Shown here in pieces: positions 48,720 to 55,507 of a DNA stretch of 64,000 bases (position 1 is the stretch's first letter; each line of letters starts with the position of its first letter). The position numbers and the translations under genes are program-made. Source of the DNA: Allohoeflea poritis (GTDB lineage: Bacteria; Pseudomonadota; Alphaproteobacteria; Rhizobiales; Rhizobiaceae); assembly GCF_027889715.1 (NCBI RefSeq), contig NZ_JAPJZH010000001.1, forward strand, positions 1 through 64,000, read 5' to 3'. The notes beneath the pieces are model-generated. The model was given only the letters and a program-made list of their open reading frames with translations, was not told the origin of the DNA and ran no database searches.

Positions 48720-48809
48720 GGAGGAGTGGCCGAGTGGTTGAAGGCACCGGTCTTGAAAACCGGCAGGCGGGAGACCGTCTCGTGGGTTCGAATCCCACCT
48801 CCTCCGCCA
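48720..48809 (+). tRNA. tRNA-Ser (anticodon TGA)
   Basis: 90 bases. Acceptor stem GGAGGAG pairs with CTCCTCC, followed by discriminator G and an encoded CCA. The anticodon arm CGGTCTTGAAAACCGG exposes TGA in the loop, the long variable arm (GGCGGGAGACCGTC region) is that of a class II tRNA, and the T arm GTGGGTTCGAATCCCAC is standard. The 3' end faces the accessory region starting at 48.98 kb. Confidence 0.97.
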
Positions 48810-48982: not shown

Positions 48983-49846
48983 ATGTCAGAACCACTTTTC
49001 CAGGACATCATTCGCAAGCGCAGAAGCGTACGCAAATTCGAACCGGGCCATCAGATTGGCCGGGATGTTCTGGAGCGGATCGTGGATTGCGGGCGTTGGG
49101 CCCCGTCCGGTGCCAATGTGCAGTGTTTTGACTTTATCGTCGTGGATCAGCCCGCACTGCGCGACAGGGTGACCGAGGTGTTCCTGCGTCAGGCTCAACG
49201 TTTGGTCGATCACGCCAAGGGCTTTCCGGCTGTCAAGAAAACTTATCTTGCCAACACGGTGGCAATTGTCATCGTTCTTGGAGATCCGCGCTGGAAGGTG
49301 TGCTTTCCGCAACCGACATCCAAAGGCTGGGAGGCAGAGTATCGCGACAACAACGAGGTGATTTTTCTGAATTCCATCGGCGCGGCCATTCAGAACATCC
49401 AGTTGGGGGTTGCCGCCGAAGGGCTGACCAGTGCCTGGTTGTCTGGCGGCGGTGAAGCGATCATCAACAAGGAATTGTCCAACGTGTTGGGATATCCTGA
49501 ATGGATGCGCGCCTATGGCACGATCCCCATCGGCTATCCGGCCGCCACGCAAAACCGCCGATACCGCAGGCCGCTGTCGCAGTCGCTCCACTGGAACGGT
49601 TACCAGCCCATGCAATACCGCACCCATGCGCAGGTGGATTTCTATGAAAGCACACTGCGTCCCTTTGCAATGTACCGCGATGAGGAATCGCTGGACGCCT
49701 GGGATGACCGGGCCGAGAAGCTGGGCGATTGGGATGCGGCCTTCACATCCGATGTGCCAAACCCCGGCGGAAAGCTGGAACCCGAAGCGGATTTTTCCGC
49801 TCCGCGCACCACGGGGCAAGCCACAAAGCGCAGAACAAAAGACTAG
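48983..49846 (+). CDS. Nitroreductase-family flavoprotein
   Basis: 287 residues. RRSVRKFEPGHQIGRDVLERIVDCGRWAPSGANVQ (about 12-46) is the FMN-binding N-terminal signature of the nitroreductase fold, and the C-terminal RAYGTIPIGYPA closes it. A 90-residue tail after the core (from about 200) is longer than in NfsB-type enzymes and has no recognised motif. The ATG has an excellent GGGAGGAAA ribosome site. It stands 13 bases before a second nitroreductase-fold gene, an evident operon. Substrate unknown; a nitro, quinone or halo-aromatic compound is possible. Confidence 0.85.
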   Translation: MSEPLFQDIIRKRRSVRKFEPGHQIGRDVLERIVDCGRWAPSGANVQCFDFIVVDQPALRDRVTEVFLRQAQRLVDHAKGFPAVKKTYLANTVAIVIVLGDPRWKVCFPQPTSKGWEAEYRDNNEVIFLNSIGAAIQNIQLGVAAEGLTSAWLSGGGEAIINKELSNVLGYPEWMRAYGTIPIGYPAATQNRRYRRPLSQSLHWNGYQPMQYRTHAQVDFYESTLRPFAMYRDEESLDAWDDRAEKLGDWDAAFTSDVPNPGGKLEPEADFSAPRTTGQATKRRTKD

Positions 49847-49859
49847 GGACACAAAACAG

Positions 49860-50552
49860 ATGTTTGCACGCGAGCATATCGAGTATGAAGCCGTGGATTT
49901 GCCCGACCGAGCCAATCTGACCGATGAACAGATGTTGGCGGCGGCCGAAGCATTCCATGACAAGATGAAGCGGCGCCACACGGTGCGGGATTATTCCACG
50001 CGGCCGGTCTCCCGGGAGGTGATCGAAAACTGTATCCGAACCGCGGGCACCGCGCCCTCCGGCGCAAACCACCAGCCCTGGCATTTCGTTGCCATCTCAA
50101 ACCCCGAATTCAAAAAGAAGATACGGGAGGCCGCTGAAGAGGAAGAACGACGGTTTTATGATGGTGGTGCGGGGGATGAGTGGTTGAAGGCGTTGGAGCC
50201 GATCGGAACCAACGATGTCAAACCCCATCTTGAAGACGCGCCCTGGCTGATTGTCGTGTTCGCTCAGAAATGGGGGTATTTCGAAGACGGTGAGCGCTTC
50301 AAGAATTACTACGTTCCGGAAAGCACGGGCATTGCCACCGGTTTTCTGCTCGCCGCGCTGCATCACGCCGGTCTCGTGACATTGACGCATACGCCCAACC
50401 CGATGAAGTTCCTCACCGGTATGCTCGGTCGGCCCGAGCACGAAAAGCCGATTATGATCGTGGCGGTTGGTCACCCGAGCGAAGATGCCAAAGTGCCGAA
50501 AGTGGCAAAGATGAAGAAGCCTCTGGATGAAATCCTGACACTGGCGGAATGA
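49860..50552 (+). CDS. Iodotyrosine deiodinase-type flavoprotein (halotyrosine dehalogenase-like)
   Basis: 230 residues of the nitroreductase fold. RRHTVRDYSTRPVSREVIENCIRTAGTAPSGANHQPWHF (about 40-78) binds FMN. The substrate-lid residues that define iodotyrosine deiodinase, Glu-x3-Tyr-x20-Lys, are present with exact family spacing: Glu96, Tyr100 and Lys121 (EEEERRFY ... GTNDVK). In IYD these clamp the amino acid zwitterion of a halotyrosine for reductive removal of the halide. The C-terminus (GVLVTLTHTPNPMKFL-like, GRPEHEKPIMIVAVGHPSEDAK) also fits. Start 13 bases after the preceding flavoprotein gene. Halotyrosine turnover is strongly suggested but not proven. Confidence 0.85.
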   Translation: MFAREHIEYEAVDLPDRANLTDEQMLAAAEAFHDKMKRRHTVRDYSTRPVSREVIENCIRTAGTAPSGANHQPWHFVAISNPEFKKKIREAAEEEERRFYDGGAGDEWLKALEPIGTNDVKPHLEDAPWLIVVFAQKWGYFEDGERFKNYYVPESTGIATGFLLAALHHAGLVTLTHTPNPMKFLTGMLGRPEHEKPIMIVAVGHPSEDAKVPKVAKMKKPLDEILTLAE

Positions 50553-50662: not shown

Positions 50663-51823
50663 ATGATATTCGTCGCGGTTTCGAAGGACGGTGAAAACGT
50701 TTCGTATCACGACACGAAACGGCACCTTTGGTGGGCCTCCGTGCTGTCGCCCGCCGTGCCCGGACTGTCGGCGGCGATGCTTTCCTGGAGCGGGCAGCCG
50801 CTCTGGTCGCTCGTTCCCCTCGCCTTCTATTATCTGGCCGTTCCGCTTCTTGATATCGCCTTTGGCGAGGATATGAACAATCCGCCCGAGGCGGTCGTCG
50901 AGCAGTTGTCGCATGACAATTATTACCGGATGCTGCTCTTCTGCTCGCTTCCCGTTCTTTGGGGCAGCTTCCTGATCTGCGCGATCGTTGCAGCGACTGC
51001 GGACCTGCCGGCCTGGGCTTATGTGTCGCTGGCGTTGAGCGCCGGCGCCGCATCAGGCGGCGGTCTGGCCGTCGGGCACGAACTCGGCCACAAGCTGAAC
51101 CTGCTCGACCAGTGGGGCGGCAAGTTGGTCTGCGCACTGACCGGCTACAGCCACTTCTGCATCGAACACAATCGTGGCCATCACACTTATGTGGCGACAC
51201 CGGAAGACTGCGCCTCGGCCCGTCTGGGCGAAAGCGTCTACGGCTTTGCCCTGCGCGAGATTCCCGGTGCCGCGCTGCGCGCCTGGCGGCTTGAACGCGC
51301 GCGGTTGGAGAAGAAGGGCTACGGTTTCTGGAACGTCCGAAACGACATTCTCCAAGGCTATGCGATCGCCATCGCGGTGGCGATTGTGCTGATAGCCGCG
51401 CTTGGCTGGATCGTGCTGCCCTTCCTGTTGATCCACCATTTTGCCGGGTGGCTGCAACTCACCTTCGCAAATTATGTGGAGCATTACGGACTGAAACGGC
51501 AGAAGCGCGAGAACGGGCGTTATGAACCTTGCGCGCCTCGGCATTCTTGGAACACGAACCATATCGTGTCGAATCTGATGCTGTTTCATTTGCAGCGCCA
51601 TTCCGACCACCACGCCAATCCGCTGCGCCCCTATCAGGCGCTTCGGGACTTTGAGGCGTTGCCGCGCCTTCCGAGCGGCTATCCGGGCTGCTTCGTGATG
51701 GCGGTTATTCCGCCGTGGTGGCGGCGCGTCATGGACCCAAGGGTGATGCGATGGGCCGATGGCGACGTGAATAAAGCCAATGTGGTTCCGGGCCTAGAGG
51801 GATGCTACGGAGCACAAGACTGA
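50663..51823 (+). CDS. alkB: Alkane 1-monooxygenase (AlkB) family membrane diiron enzyme
   Basis: 386 residues with about six transmembrane helices in pairs. All histidine boxes are intact: HELGHK (139-144), EHNRGHH (168-174), LQRHSDHH (310-317), plus the AlkB-specific NYVEHYGL (270-277) that separates it from fatty-acid desaturases. It would hydroxylate the terminal carbon of alkanes or related chains at the inner membrane using rubredoxin, none of which is encoded nearby. It follows the deiodinase-like gene by 110 bases, so co-transcription is possible but not certain. It converges on the orphan membrane gene. Confidence 0.9.
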   Translation: MIFVAVSKDGENVSYHDTKRHLWWASVLSPAVPGLSAAMLSWSGQPLWSLVPLAFYYLAVPLLDIAFGEDMNNPPEAVVEQLSHDNYYRMLLFCSLPVLWGSFLICAIVAATADLPAWAYVSLALSAGAASGGGLAVGHELGHKLNLLDQWGGKLVCALTGYSHFCIEHNRGHHTYVATPEDCASARLGESVYGFALREIPGAALRAWRLERARLEKKGYGFWNVRNDILQGYAIAIAVAIVLIAALGWIVLPFLLIHHFAGWLQLTFANYVEHYGLKRQKRENGRYEPCAPRHSWNTNHIVSNLMLFHLQRHSDHHANPLRPYQALRDFEALPRLPSGYPGCFVMAVIPPWWRRVMDPRVMRWADGDVNKANVVPGLEGCYGAQD

Positions 51824-51832
51824 CCATCAATC

Positions 51833-51848
51833 GAATTTGTACAAATTC
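51833..51848. repeat. 16 bp perfect palindrome between convergent genes
   Basis: GAATTTGTACAAATTC reads the same on both strands and lies 10 bases after alkB, overlapping the stop codon of the convergent membrane-protein gene. It has no loop and is AT-rich, so a conventional terminator is unlikely. A protein-binding site or a recombination/insertion scar are alternatives. Confidence 0.5.
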
Positions 51849-52749
51849 ACCGGAACTTCTTCTTTAAGTAGCGGAGTGTCGGATGATGCGACCAGACCTT
51901 AAGCCGCGGGCCGCTTGTCTGTATGTTGATGCCTAGCAAAATGCTGCGATAGGCGTTCCAGCAATATGCAACGGCCAGGAAAAAGCCGATTGCAATCAGG
52001 AAAGTGAAGAACATCTGCGGTCCATTCATATCCACGAAATAGTCAACCGCCGGATAACGGTCGGTTGCACAATCCGATATCTTCAGAACCAGATGTGAAC
52101 CAATGCCACACCCGTTGGTTTCGTTTATGGCCGCGTAGAGTTTTGCAACGGTTACGACGATACCGATAACGGGAAGGAAGCAGATCGCGAAGTGTATGAT
52201 GTATTTGTTCGCGATCCTTGACGCGCTCCGAAAAAATGGTGACGCGTTGTCCGAAATCGCTTTTACCGAGTGTACGCCACCATCCATAAGGGCGGTTACG
52301 TATTTGTGTTTTGTCAGCTTTTGTTTTGGGGTGTCGCCAACCCTGATTTTTATCAAAAAGGGCTTCTTGTTGTTCCCCTGTAGGATGGACAATGCCGTGA
52401 TCAGGTTGTGCGTTTCGGACGACCTAAGCCTGGCCGCAGAGTAAGGAACGGAGAAGAATATCAGGAAAACCAGAACAGTGTACAAATAGGTTTTCAAGGG
52501 CAGCGGTACGCCGAAGAGCACGGGTTGTGAGGCGGAATGCGTCCCTGCTTCAGGAATCTGAATCATCGCCGTTACGAATATCAGTGCGAGACTGAAAACC
52601 CACAGGCGGGAAAAATACTTCTGGTGCTCGCTGTGTGCAGGAAGCAGTCGCTTTATGTACTCATCCGCGTCCACTTTCTCTGAGATGACGGCGTCAACGC
52701 TTAACGTTTTATCATTTTCATCCGCAATATCCGATTTTCGGTCAGACAT
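51847..52749 (-). CDS. Orphan membrane protein of unknown function
   Basis: 300 residues. A charged N-terminus (about 1-50) is followed by helices at about 53-70 and 88-110, a cytosolic-looking middle of about 80 residues, and further helices at about 190-215 and 250-275, with a basic tail ending LRYLKKKFR. No family is recognised. Base composition is visibly more AT-rich than in the neighbouring core genes, suggesting recent transfer. The ATG at 52749 has GGAAGGGG just upstream and is preferred to a longer reading. It lies between alkB (convergent) and the dehalogenase-like gene (same strand, 131 bases upstream). Confidence 0.65.
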   Translation of the reverse strand: MSDRKSDIADENDKTLSVDAVISEKVDADEYIKRLLPAHSEHQKYFSRLWVFSLALIFVTAMIQIPEAGTHSASQPVLFGVPLPLKTYLYTVLVFLIFFSVPYSAARLRSSETHNLITALSILQGNNKKPFLIKIRVGDTPKQKLTKHKYVTALMDGGVHSVKAISDNASPFFRSASRIANKYIIHFAICFLPVIGIVVTVAKLYAAINETNGCGIGSHLVLKISDCATDRYPAVDYFVDMNGPQMFFTFLIAIGFFLAVAYCWNAYRSILLGINIQTSGPRLKVWSHHPTLRYLKKKFR

Positions 52750-52880
52750 GGGCCCCTTCCATTGGCCGTTGCGGCAAATACTCATCCGCCGCCCCGACCT
52801 GCAGTGATACATCTGTTACATTGAGTATAGATTGCAGTGGAAGGGCTACACAACCCAACAGTCTGCTTGCCGCCGCTGTT

Positions 52881-53888
52881 TCAGTCTGGCCGAAGCGACC
52901 CGCTCCGGTCAGTCAGCCGCCCCGCCCTGCGCGCCAATTTGTCGGCAAGCTTCACGCCGACACCCGGGCGGCTCCACGGGCATTCTGCGATACAGATGGC
53001 GCAGCCATGGGTCTCGTTGAAAAATGGCAGGCATTTGTCGAAATCGACATACCATTTCTGCTTGCCGCGAACGGTCTGTTTCTCCTCAAAGATTGCCTCT
53101 GGCGGGCATGCATCCTCGCAGATGCGGCAGTTCATGCAGAAATCGTCGAGTCCGAAAGGTTGCGGCGGTGTCGGTTCGAATGGCGCGTCCGTCAGCACCG
53201 CCGACAGGCGGAAGCTCGCGCCCATCTCTGGCGTGATCAATGAACCGTGCTTGCCGAGCTCACCGAAACCGCAGGCGATTGCCGGTGGAATGAGCGTGAT
53301 CTTCCCGGCCATCGGGCCGGTCACAGGATCGGCATCCCAACCGGAACGCCGGAGCCAGCCGGCGATCGCCTTGGCGGCAAAGGCAGCCCGGCTGTACTGG
53401 CGCATGACCTCGGCGCCGGCGCGCGGCCTGGGCGCCTCGGATATCGCTTCGTAATTGTGCTGTACGCCAATGACGACGACATTCGAAAACGGTGTGTCCT
53501 GCCCATCGAAAAGCCAGTCGCGGTCAAGCGGCGTTGCGCCGACTTGCTCGCAGTGGCCGGCCGAGATGTATTGCTGCAGCGCTCCGGTCCAGTCGGCCGG
53601 TGTGCGTTCCACCCGCCGCTCCGACAGCTCCGGCAGCGGCGCGTCGAGGATCTGCTTGCGTGCGGCGCGCTCCGCAACGATTGCCGGCTCGTCCGGATTG
53701 ACCGTATAGAACCAGCGCTGCAGCCGCCCGTGGGGAATCGCATCCGGATCAGGCGCCCAATAGACGATGTCGGGGCGCCGGAATTCCTCCTCGCCAAGTC
53801 CATTGACCTTGTTGCCCGAGATGGCAGGCGCGCATTCCATCTGCGCCGGATCGGGTGTGAATGGACGATACGGGTTTGGCTTCGGCAT
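52881..53888 (-). CDS. Cytosolic reductive-dehalogenase-like corrinoid/iron-sulfur protein
   Basis: 335 residues. The C-terminal half is that of RdhA: GFGELGKHGSLITPEMGASFRLSAVLTD (about 207-234), then two 4Fe-4S motifs, CxxCxxCxxxCP at Cys251/254/257/261 and Cys286 with CxxCxxxCP at 296/299/303, and KWYVDFDKC between them. The N-terminal part (QVGATPLDRDWLFDG, VVVIGVQHNYE) also follows the RdhA pattern, and Tyr165 lies where RdhA-like enzymes carry a conserved Tyr-Ser helix. QueG is the closest alternative but has a different second-cluster motif. There is no Tat signal and no RdhB anchor gene, so it should be cytosolic, as in aerobic RdhA variants. Cobalamin-dependent dehalogenation is inferred. 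Confidence 0.8.
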   Translation of the reverse strand: MPKPNPYRPFTPDPAQMECAPAISGNKVNGLGEEEFRRPDIVYWAPDPDAIPHGRLQRWFYTVNPDEPAIVAERAARKQILDAPLPELSERRVERTPADWTGALQQYISAGHCEQVGATPLDRDWLFDGQDTPFSNVVVIGVQHNYEAISEAPRPRAGAEVMRQYSRAAFAAKAIAGWLRRSGWDADPVTGPMAGKITLIPPAIACGFGELGKHGSLITPEMGASFRLSAVLTDAPFEPTPPQPFGLDDFCMNCRICEDACPPEAIFEEKQTVRGKQKWYVDFDKCLPFFNETHGCAICIAECPWSRPGVGVKLADKLARRAGRLTDRSGSLRPD

Positions 53889-53956: not shown

Positions 53957-55507
53957 TCAGTTCCCGTTTTCGCGGGTTTCTTCGTAGTGCTTCAGGGCCG
54001 TTTTGAGGACGGCGGAATTATAGTTGCGGGCAATGCGATCCAAAGGTGAAACAATGATATCCGGGACGAGCGTGTGTTCCTCGTTGAAGCGGTTTTCTTT
54101 CGTGCGGAAGCAGATTGTCGGGATTCGTAACTGGAAGCCGGTATGTTCCAGCGTATAGGTGCCTTCGGCGCGTGCGCAGGATGTTACAACATTGGTTCCC
54201 GTAACACTGCCGACAATGGTGGCCTTTCTCAGCCTCTTCAGCGTTGCGGCCACCCTTATGGCGTTGGACCGGCTGCTCGGGCTGACAAGAACATAAATCT
54301 TCCCCTTGTAGTCCGGTTTTCCAAACGACCTTTTGCGGATTGGTGCCTTGCGCACACCGCCTTTCTTGCGGACTTTCCGGAAAAATCTGGCGTCCGACTT
54401 CCTCCGCTTTTCCGCCTCCTCGTCGAAATACTTGAAATTGCCGGGTACTTTTCGAGAGACGTCCCTGACATAGGCCTCGCTGAATACGCGATGAGCCCTT
54501 GGCAGGAGAAATGCCATCAAGTGCTGACCCGTGTGCGTTGATCCGCCGGGATTATCTACCAGGTCAAGGAATATCGCGTCGGGTCTGCGGTCGATAATAT
54601 CGCGCATGATCAATTCCACGCCCTCTTCCGAACGCTCGAAATCCTTGAACGACCCGATGCCGACATAGGCCAGGTTGCGGCTGGTCGAATATCGGTAGTA
54701 GATGTCGGCGTCCCTGACCTTTATCAACAAACCATTGTGATGATCGAATTTCTGATCAACCAGGTCCCCCGTTATGATCTTCCTGTCCAATCTGAACTTG
54801 CGGGTCGACAGCATCCGGGTTTCCCAAGAAGCCGCGCGTTCGACTTCGCGGGTTTGAATGGTCTCTCTGTCAAGGCTGCGAGTCCTGACGTGATATTTGT
54901 CTCTGTCCCCGATCATAGCAGCGACAATTCTTGCATTGATTGGGAGGGTATCGTTCACATCGATGTGACTGTCTCGGCCGCAGCCGTCCATCGGAACCCG
55001 TTTTAATATGTTTGCGGCAATGGTCTTTCCCGACAAACCTTCGATCTCGAGAACTTCCTCTGCTTTTCCGCTCAGTACGATCCGCATATAGAGCTTCCCG
55101 CCGTTCACCATCAAAGGATATGTGAACCACGGCCAGCCTTGGGGGATCAGGTCCGTCTCGTTCGGATCACCGTAAATGACCTGGGTGTGTTCGTCGCAGA
55201 CAAAGCCCACCAGCTCTGAAATTGCCATGTAGACTGTTTCGCGCGTGCTGCCGTCAGCGGCCGCAGTGACCAGTTCTTCGAAGAGTGTTTTGAGTTCTTT
55301 TGAGCTCTTGTGAGCGGTCAGGTTCGGATGCAGCTTCCTTAACAACTCATAGGTTTTTGTGAGGTCGGCTTTGTATTCTTCGCTTGAGTATGTTTCGACC
55401 CGATCCGCCGATGCCGGCCGTGTCAAATCACCCAAACCTGCGAGTAAAATGCCGCAGGCACAAAATAAGCTCAGAATGTGCCGTATTACGTATCTGTGGA
55501 CAGACAT
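53957..55507 (-). CDS. Exported S41-like (C-terminal-processing-peptidase-related) protein
   Basis: 516 residues with a signal peptide (about 8-34, ending ASA). Residues about 45-110 are a helical region met in S41 proteins (YKADLTKTYELLRKLHPNL), and the peptidase-like core is near 275-500: YVGIGSFKDF, DAIFLDLVDNPGGSTHTGQHL and VLVSPSSRSNAIRVAATLKRL, where the family has its catalytic Ser. The Lys expected after it (GxxTxGK) is replaced (GSVTGTNVV), so activity is doubtful or of another S41 type. A very basic insert (about 385-420) interrupts the core. Codon and base use are AT-richer than in the core genes. Confidence 0.65.
   Translation of the reverse strand: MSVHRYVIRHILSLFCACGILLAGLGDLTRPASADRVETYSSEEYKADLTKTYELLRKLHPNLTAHKSSKELKTLFEELVTAAADGSTRETVYMAISELVGFVCDEHTQVIYGDPNETDLIPQGWPWFTYPLMVNGGKLYMRIVLSGKAEEVLEIEGLSGKTIAANILKRVPMDGCGRDSHIDVNDTLPINARIVAAMIGDRDKYHVRTRSLDRETIQTREVERAASWETRMLSTRKFRLDRKIITGDLVDQKFDHHNGLLIKVRDADIYYRYSTSRNLAYVGIGSFKDFERSEEGVELIMRDIIDRRPDAIFLDLVDNPGGSTHTGQHLMAFLLPRAHRVFSEAYVRDVSRKVPGNFKYFDEEAEKRRKSDARFFRKVRKKGGVRKAPIRKRSFGKPDYKGKIYVLVSPSSRSNAIRVAATLKRLRKATIVGSVTGTNVVTSCARAEGTYTLEHTGFQLRIPTICFRTKENRFNEEHTLVPDIIVSPLDRIARNYNSAVLKTALKHYEETRENGN

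What the first reader, a model, noticed from the sequence alone, without database searches (positions are those of the whole stretch)
52881..53888. Small cytosolic RdhA-like protein in a presumably aerobic alphaproteobacterium
The protein has the RdhA C-terminal pattern (GELGKHGSLITPE loop, KWYVDxxKC, Cys251/254/257/261 and Cys286/296/299/303 clusters) but only 335 residues, no Tat signal, no RdhB anchor gene and no fused flavin reductase domain. It is therefore neither the classical respiratory type nor the long fused aerobic type. It may be a stand-alone corrinoid dehalogenase fed by a separate reductase, or a new branch between QueG and RdhA.
Basis: partly seen in the sequence, partly recalled or inferred. 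Interest (0 to 1): 0.72.

Follow-up and report, generated by a model that had tools for sequence, protein, structure and literature searches.

The report
Short stand-alone cytosolic RdhA-type reductase
This gene encodes a small soluble relative of the vitamin-B12 enzymes that strip halogens from organic compounds; it belongs to a scattered alphaproteobacterial branch of that family that standard annotation models score too low to name, and its substrate is unknown.

Summary
Window 52881-53888 (minus) is an intact 335-aa gene with all the motifs claimed, no Tat pattern, no RdhB-like neighbour and no fused reductase. It scores 112 bits on the reductive dehalogenase model (cut-off 160) against 44 on QueG (cut-off 200); the genome has its own QueG. 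In a 74-row tree it lies in a 40-row clade of short alphaproteobacterial proteins (support 96/84), apart from QueG (100/100), NpRdhA-type catabolic RdhA, a PceA/Ros_A3X954-like group and a second short clade. The clade keeps the catalytic Tyr (Y165, 51 of 51), an Arg at the PceA Arg305 position (R227, 51 of 51) and the eight Fe-S cysteines (one 50 of 51), and lacks the Asp found at the matching column in 13 of 13 QueG. It is under purifying selection (dN/dS 0.07); the same genome holds a 60% paralogue and a long RdhA fused to a ferredoxin-type domain. So it is an RdhA-family protein, not QueG. 'Between QueG and RdhA' is not shown: the branching order inside RdhA is unresolved. Stand-alone Tat-less RdhAs are already known, so this is a new variant of a known kind. 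Neighbouring genes vary; corrinoid binding and substrate were not testable here.

The parts
52881..53888 (-). Short stand-alone RdhA-type reductase gene, 335 aa
53790..53828 (-). N-terminal conserved motif, residues 21-33 (PAISGNKVNGLGE); P21 50/51, G25 51/51, N29 50/51, G30 51/51 in the clade
53394..53396 (-). Tyr165, aligned with PceA Tyr246 / NpRdhA Tyr426 (proposed proton donor); 51/51
53238..53264 (-). Loop GELGKHGSL, residues 209-217; Lys213 49/51 (Lys in 12/13 QueG; Arg in the PceA, Ros-like and catabolic rows)
53208..53210 (-). Arg227, aligned with PceA Arg305 / NpRdhA Lys488; 51/51; Phe or Leu in 13/13 QueG
53106..53138 (-). First [4Fe-4S] motif, Cys251/254/257/261
52980..53033 (-). 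Second [4Fe-4S] motif, Cys286/296/299/303; Phe290 (45/51) sits at the NpRdhA Arg552 / PceA Trp376 position
51847..52812 (-). Downstream same-strand membrane protein, 321 aa, four hydrophobic stretches; among the fetched loci found only here and in Nitratireductor sp. XY-223; link to the enzyme unproven

Best explanation
It is a cytosolic, single-domain member of the RdhA family, from a distinct clade of mostly 325-350 aa proteins in Alphaproteobacteria. It most likely binds a cobamide in the nitroreductase-like core and two [4Fe-4S] clusters in the C-terminal part, receives electrons from a general ferredoxin/flavodoxin system encoded elsewhere, and uses cobalt chemistry with Tyr165 as proton donor, helped by Arg227, to replace a halogen (or a similar leaving group) on a small organic molecule by hydrogen, as a catabolic or detoxifying step and not as respiration. 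Shown by sequence: family, clade, residues, lack of Tat/RdhB/reductase domain, purifying selection. Inferred: cofactors, electron source, reaction. Unknown: substrate.
For: TIGR02486 4.2e-32, 112 bits, against QueG 44 bits. PDB hits led by PceA-type chains. Y165, R227, W279 and seven Cys 51/51, C303 50/51; 0/51 have Asp at column 170, which 13/13 QueG have. Careful tree: QueG apart 100/100, clade 96/84. Profile comparison of the clade: second short clade 2.9e-50, Ros-like 2e-47, catabolic core 1.5e-33, QueG 2e-23. The 5-sequence model, although low in confidence (mean pLDDT 54.7), matches PceA and NpRdhA before QueG. The genome has CobN (1743 bits) and a separate QueG. Tyr246/Tyr426 as proposed proton donor: passages of PMC7565698 and PMC5500849. 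dN/dS 0.072, and 0.107 for the paralogue pair. In three genomes of one genus (L114, L116, L117) the gene lies near homoprotocatechuate genes; HpaD, HpaE and HpaR pass their cut-offs in L116, the only one of the three whose genes of that pathway were scanned for them; a fused RdhA supports growth on 3-bromo-4-hydroxyphenylacetate (passages of PMC10463259).
Against: Below the curated TIGR02486 cut-off, and PF13486 is not hit in 15 of 15 members scanned. The Lys488/Arg552 pair that holds the phenol in NpRdhA is Arg227/Phe290 here, so a phenol of the NpRdhA kind is not implied. No general neighbour in 47 contexts. The iodotyrosine deiodinase gene close by in the window is not near the XY-223 orthologue, and co-occurrence is not significant. 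The model is poor over the Fe-S part and the N-terminus. The nearest assayed stand-alone enzyme, Ros_A3X954, lost activity on exposure to oxygen, so Tat-less does not mean oxygen-tolerant. No member is known to me to have been assayed.
Confidence: 0.65

Rival explanations
1. RdhA-family fold with a different reaction: a cobamide-dependent reductase that removes a non-halogen group (epoxide oxygen, hydroxyl, or similar) from a small molecule.
For: The superfamily already holds a non-dehalogenating member, QueG; the clade has its own pocket signature (Tyr165, Arg227, Phe290, QueG-like Lys213-His214) and a conserved N-terminal motif; no general link to a dehalogenation gene.
Against: The Tyr and the Arg of dehalogenases are both invariant; the nearest families by profile are dehalogenases.
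Confidence: 0.25
2. It is a divergent QueG or second queuosine enzyme.
For: The QueG model matches weakly over residues 203-307 (44 bits); a Lys-His loop is shared with QueG.
Against: The genome has a full QueG (440.9 bits); the Asp present in 13/13 QueG is absent in 51/51; Arg227, Gly246 and the segment before Trp279 are RdhA-like, with gaps in QueG at 246, 270 and 273-275; tree 100/100; of the four groups compared by profile, QueG is the most distant.
Confidence: 0.03
3. It works together with the nearby iodotyrosine deiodinase as a haloaromatic-removing pair in this genome.
For: An iodotyrosine deiodinase homologue (PDB 5ko7 9.8e-67; 4ttb, Iodotyrosine dehalogenase 1, 7.7e-50) lies at 49878-50549, about 2.3 kb away.
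Against: Opposite strand, not near the XY-223 orthologue; in 240 class genomes 4 carry both, of 17 short-RdhA and 23 deiodinase carriers, Fisher p 0.066, and 0.17 without the own genome.
Confidence: 0.05

Closest known systems
Ros_A3X954 (Roseobacter sp. MED193), stand-alone Tat-less debrominase; relative A0A2T7UTL8 (PMC13101508)
   Same: No Tat, no fused reductase described, two [4Fe-4S] motifs, alphaproteobacterial; L074, which carries its quoted motifs, and its five group members keep the Tyr and the Arg.
   Different: Its first Fe-S motif is at 283-294 (paper) against 251-262 here; it has PF13486 (paper), as do the two Ros-like frames I scanned, one just over the cut-off; Ros-like rows have 27-31% identity to the window core and group with PceA, though a joint clade with the window clade is not rejected.
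NpRdhA / BhbA / JtRdhA catabolic RdhA (PMC10463259, PMC7565698)
   Same: Cytosolic, B12 plus two [4Fe-4S], catalytic Tyr; the own genome has one of this group with a C-terminal Fer2 domain (1077 aa).
   Different: Much longer, with a vestigial N-terminal domain; Lys and Arg where this clade has Arg227 and Phe290; a joint clade has p-AU 0.037.
PceA (Sulfurospirillum; PDB 4uqu) and respiratory RdhA
   Same: Tyr246/Arg305 equivalents; the best PDB sequence matches are tetrachloroethene dehalogenase chains.
   Different: Exported by Tat and anchored by RdhB (general family fact); Trp376 where the clade has Phe290.
QueG epoxyqueuosine reductase
   Same: Same cobamide/Fe-S superfamily; Lys-His loop.
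   Different: Asp at column 170, gaps at 270 and 273-275, separate gene in this genome.

Membership tests
RdhA reductive dehalogenase family | Significant match to the RdhA core model at its curated cut-off | tested here: not met
   E 4.2e-32 but 112 bits against 160.35; 22 of 22 rows that correspond to short-type places are below it (85.7-121.6 bits). The match itself is far from chance, so I rest the family claim on the features below
RdhA reductive dehalogenase family | Two [4Fe-4S] motifs CxxCxxCxxxCP and CxxCxxxCP | tested here: met
   residues 251-262 and 296-304
RdhA reductive dehalogenase family | Catalytic Tyr and basic partner (PceA Tyr246/Arg305, NpRdhA Tyr426/Lys488) | tested here: met
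   Y165 and R227, 51/51 each
RdhA reductive dehalogenase family | Lies on the RdhA side of the branch to QueG | tested here: met
   100/100; unrooted, QueG used as outgroup
RdhA reductive dehalogenase family | Binds corrinoid and dehalogenates | not testable with these tools
   needs protein
Pfam PF13486 Dehalogenase | Match to the model | tested here: not met
   no match up to E 1 in 15 of 15 clade members, window included; of four controls L074 and L067 match, the fragments L078 and L047 do not; the own fused RdhA does not match either, so the model is not diagnostic
Respiratory RdhA | Tat signal and RdhB partner | tested here: not met
Catabolic NpRdhA/BhbA type | Vestigial N-terminal core domain, with or without a reductase domain | tested here: not met
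   335 aa with room for one core only; by profile the vestigial domain is closest to its own C-terminal core (5.9e-29), next to this clade (9.5e-16)
Stand-alone Ros_A3X954 type | Same clade as L074, which bears the Ros motifs | tested here: inconclusive
   separate in the tree but a joint clade is not rejected, p-AU 0.125
QueG | Above the TIGR00276 cut-off, and catalytic Asp | tested here: not met
   44 of 200 bits; 0/51 Asp at column 170. That this column is Asp134 is recalled; the PDB title of 5t8y names an Asp134 catalytic loop

The most novel reading that the evidence does not exclude
The short clade is an additional subfamily of cobamide-dependent reductases beside the four named ones: a minimal single-domain enzyme with its own pocket (Tyr165, Arg227, Phe290, Lys213-His214), performing a reductive elimination not yet described in the family, on a natural haloaromatic or on a non-halogenated metabolite.
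Probability: 0.3. Interest if true: 0.65.

Novelty: new variant of a known kind. Interest (0 to 1): 0.42.

Why it matters
About 6% of the sampled alphaproteobacterial species genomes (22 of 385, own genome included) carry such a gene. The members scanned fall below the NCBIfam dehalogenase cut-off and do not hit the Pfam one (15 of 15), so surveys seeded with those models (for example the PF13486-seeded network of PMC13101508) would tend to miss them. If active, it would be a small soluble B12 reductase suited to study and use, and a pointer to organohalogen turnover by common bacteria that are not known organohalide respirers.

Tried and rejected

Rows dropped: identical C-terminal stretches were merged (83 frames left); before the first tree three frames (L009_12 and L085_1, incomplete; L093_6) and the own QueG frame of L012, and only 5 of 14 QueG loci passed my motif filter; before the careful tree two long-branch rows (L091, L076) and 19 near-duplicate or redundant rows, with the five QueG rows replaced by 13 and L107 left out as partial. 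The names 'Ros-like', 'short clade' and 'CHICVD' are my labels.

Full report
What is there. Window 52881-53888 on the minus strand is a 335-aa ORF. Pfam gives only ferredoxin-type matches, one over its cut-off (Fer4_7 5.8e-8). NCBIfam gives reductive dehalogenase TIGR02486 at 4.2e-32, 112.3 bits (cut-off 160.35), and QueG TIGR00276 at 1.1e-11, 44.3 bits (cut-off 200). The best PDB sequence matches are the tetrachloroethene dehalogenase chains 8q4h (9.2e-28) and 4uqu (7.7e-25), then NpRdhA 4ras (2.5e-21); QueG 5d6s is at 1.3e-7.

The genome. The same assembly (5.58 Mb, 54 contigs) holds a 60% identical full-length paralogue on another contig, a frame of 1100 aa with an RdhA core, and a QueG. 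The long one, 1077 aa from its first ATG, has a C-terminal Fer2 domain over its cut-off and a sub-threshold reductase-type match (DmmA-like_N), so it is of the fused kind. The QueG scores 440.9 bits. A cobaltochelatase CobN (1743 bits) suggests cobalamin synthesis. One genome placed in the same genus has a contig of the same length (1418466) as a record titled Nitratireductor sp. XY-223, so I take the two to be the same; it carries an 88% orthologue and a 61% paralogue. dN/dS is 0.072 between the orthologues over 325 codons and 0.107 for the paralogue pair over 329 codons, so both copies look to be under purifying selection.

Distribution. With E up to 1e-30, matches were found in 10 of 297 genomes of the order, 25 of 385 of the class, 3 of 398 of the phylum sample, these three being the own genome and two of its class, and 5 of 41 relatives. 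Three of the 25 class genomes (G408, G593, G670) match only through another short clade, leaving 22 of 385, one of them (G377) with a 278-aa frame that I did not place in a tree; one of the 10 order genomes (G102) likewise matches only through the other clade, leaving 9 of 297. With TIGR02486 as query, 28 of 240 class genomes match, 13 of them over the cut-off; the 22 rows there that correspond to short-type places all fall below it, at 85.7-121.6 bits. Other phyla were not searched.

Clade. A first tree of 87 core sequences and a careful one of 74 both show a clade of short proteins holding the window protein (40 rows, bootstrap 96, SH-aLRT 84; in the first, quick tree the branch had SH-aLRT 84 over 51 rows and left L024 outside). 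Four other groups stand apart: QueG (13 rows, 100/100), the NpRdhA-type catabolic group with the own fused protein (9 rows, 100/99), a group of PceA with Ros_A3X954-like proteins (8 rows, 100/98; L074 contains the two motifs quoted for Ros_A3X954), and a second short clade with a CHICVD-like second motif (4 rows, 100/100). The tree draws the window clade as sister to the other RdhA (92/82), but holding it together with the PceA/Ros group (p-AU 0.125) or with the second short clade (0.335) is not rejected; with the catabolic group it is weakly rejected (0.037). The order of branches is therefore open, and 'between QueG and RdhA' is not established.

Residues. Among 51 short-clade sequences Tyr165, Arg227, Trp279 and the eight Fe-S cysteines are invariant except C303 (50/51). 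Tyr165 aligns with PceA Tyr246 and NpRdhA Tyr426, and Arg227 with PceA Arg305 and NpRdhA Lys488 (alignments, numbering counted by hand). [quoted passage not shown] The Arg552 position is Phe290 here (45 of 51), Trp in the PceA and Ros-like rows, Arg in 9 of 9 catabolic rows. At these positions the pocket resembles PceA more than NpRdhA, and phenols are not specially implied. QueG has Asp at column 170 (13/13) where the clade has none (0/51), Phe or Leu at 227, and gaps at 246, 270 and 273-275. Lys213-His214 is QueG-like but is also found in the second short clade.

Neighbourhood. In the window the gene lies between an S41 peptidase (53957-55507) and a 321-aa membrane protein (51847-52812), with an AlkB-type alkane monooxygenase (50663-51823), an iodotyrosine deiodinase homologue (49878-50549) and a second nitroreductase-family gene (48986-49843) beyond. 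Of these five genes only the membrane protein (60%) and AlkB (86%) were found near the XY-223 orthologue. Across 47 contexts with a called short-RdhA gene no neighbour is general. In 18 of these loci a same-strand gene overlaps or lies within 60 bp, but the genes differ; gene calls there are my own rough ones. The most suggestive context is in three loci of one genus (L114, L116, L117): the gene lies near homoprotocatechuate genes. HpaD, HpaE and HpaR of L116 pass their NCBIfam cut-offs, while its isomerase and HpaG-like proteins match below theirs. Since a fused RdhA lets E. coli W grow on 3-bromo-4-hydroxyphenylacetate (passages of PMC10463259), halogenated 4-hydroxyphenylacetates are a reasonable first substrate to try; this is inference from one genus.

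Literature. PMC10463259 (one section and passages read) divides RdhA into four subfamilies by domain organisation: two catabolic, respiratory and transmembrane. PMC13101508 (abstract, introduction, two results sections, discussion and passages read) reports Ros_A3X954, a Tat-less debrominase not assigned to any orthologue group, active on 2,6-dibromophenol and sensitive to oxygen. PMC6299228 (passages) gives RDase genes in 7.8% of Alphaproteobacteria and says that Tat-less RdhA may be cytoplasmic. PMC3939436 (two sections and passages) describes Tat-less genes from subseafloor metagenomes and alphaproteobacterial clusters named Al1 and Al2, of which Al2 is that of BhbA; I could not tell whether Al1 is this clade. 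PMC10008544 (passages) covers T7RdhA. The listings of my searches (open-access PMC only) and the papers opened showed no description of this clade, but most listed papers were not opened, most subscription papers are not held, and the expression screen of Ng and Silver was not found.

Verdict. A real, conserved, cytosolic RdhA-family protein of a distinct short clade; not QueG. Dehalogenation is the likeliest reaction but is inferred. Stand-alone Tat-less RdhAs are known, so the finding is a new variant of a known kind, of moderate interest.

Noticed in passing
window 49878-50549 (+) and 48986-49843 (+): A clear bacterial iodotyrosine deiodinase homologue (PDB 5ko7 9.8e-67) directly after a second nitroreductase-family gene; neither was found beside the orthologous locus of XY-223.
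   Followed up: partly
window 50663-51823 (+): Alkane 1-monooxygenase homologue (PDB 8sbb 9e-117), kept near the RdhA-like gene in XY-223 at 86% identity; a 35% relative lies some genes away in L008.
   Followed up: no
L011:7944-11177 (own genome, contig C11): RdhA of the catabolic group, 1077 aa, with a C-terminal Fer2 domain, in the same genome as two short ones.
   Followed up: partly
L146 (G997 contig C11) and L147: Five short-RdhA-like genes called in a row on one contig and one more on another in a single 2.4-Mb genome.
   Followed up: no
L047, L049, L089, L086, L021: A second clade of short RdhA-like proteins (open frames 306-362 aa) with a CHICVD-like second Fe-S motif; the stretch of the one scanned (L089) is also below the TIGR02486 cut-off.
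   Followed up: partly
L150:5769-7793: RACo-type reductive activator of corrinoid proteins, convergent with a short RdhA gene.
   Followed up: no
window 48720-48809: tRNA-Ser (TGA) about 180 bases before the nitroreductase pair; its role as an insertion site was not tested.
   Followed up: no
window 53957-55507 (-): S41-family peptidase upstream on the same strand; not found at the orthologous XY-223 locus.
   Followed up: no
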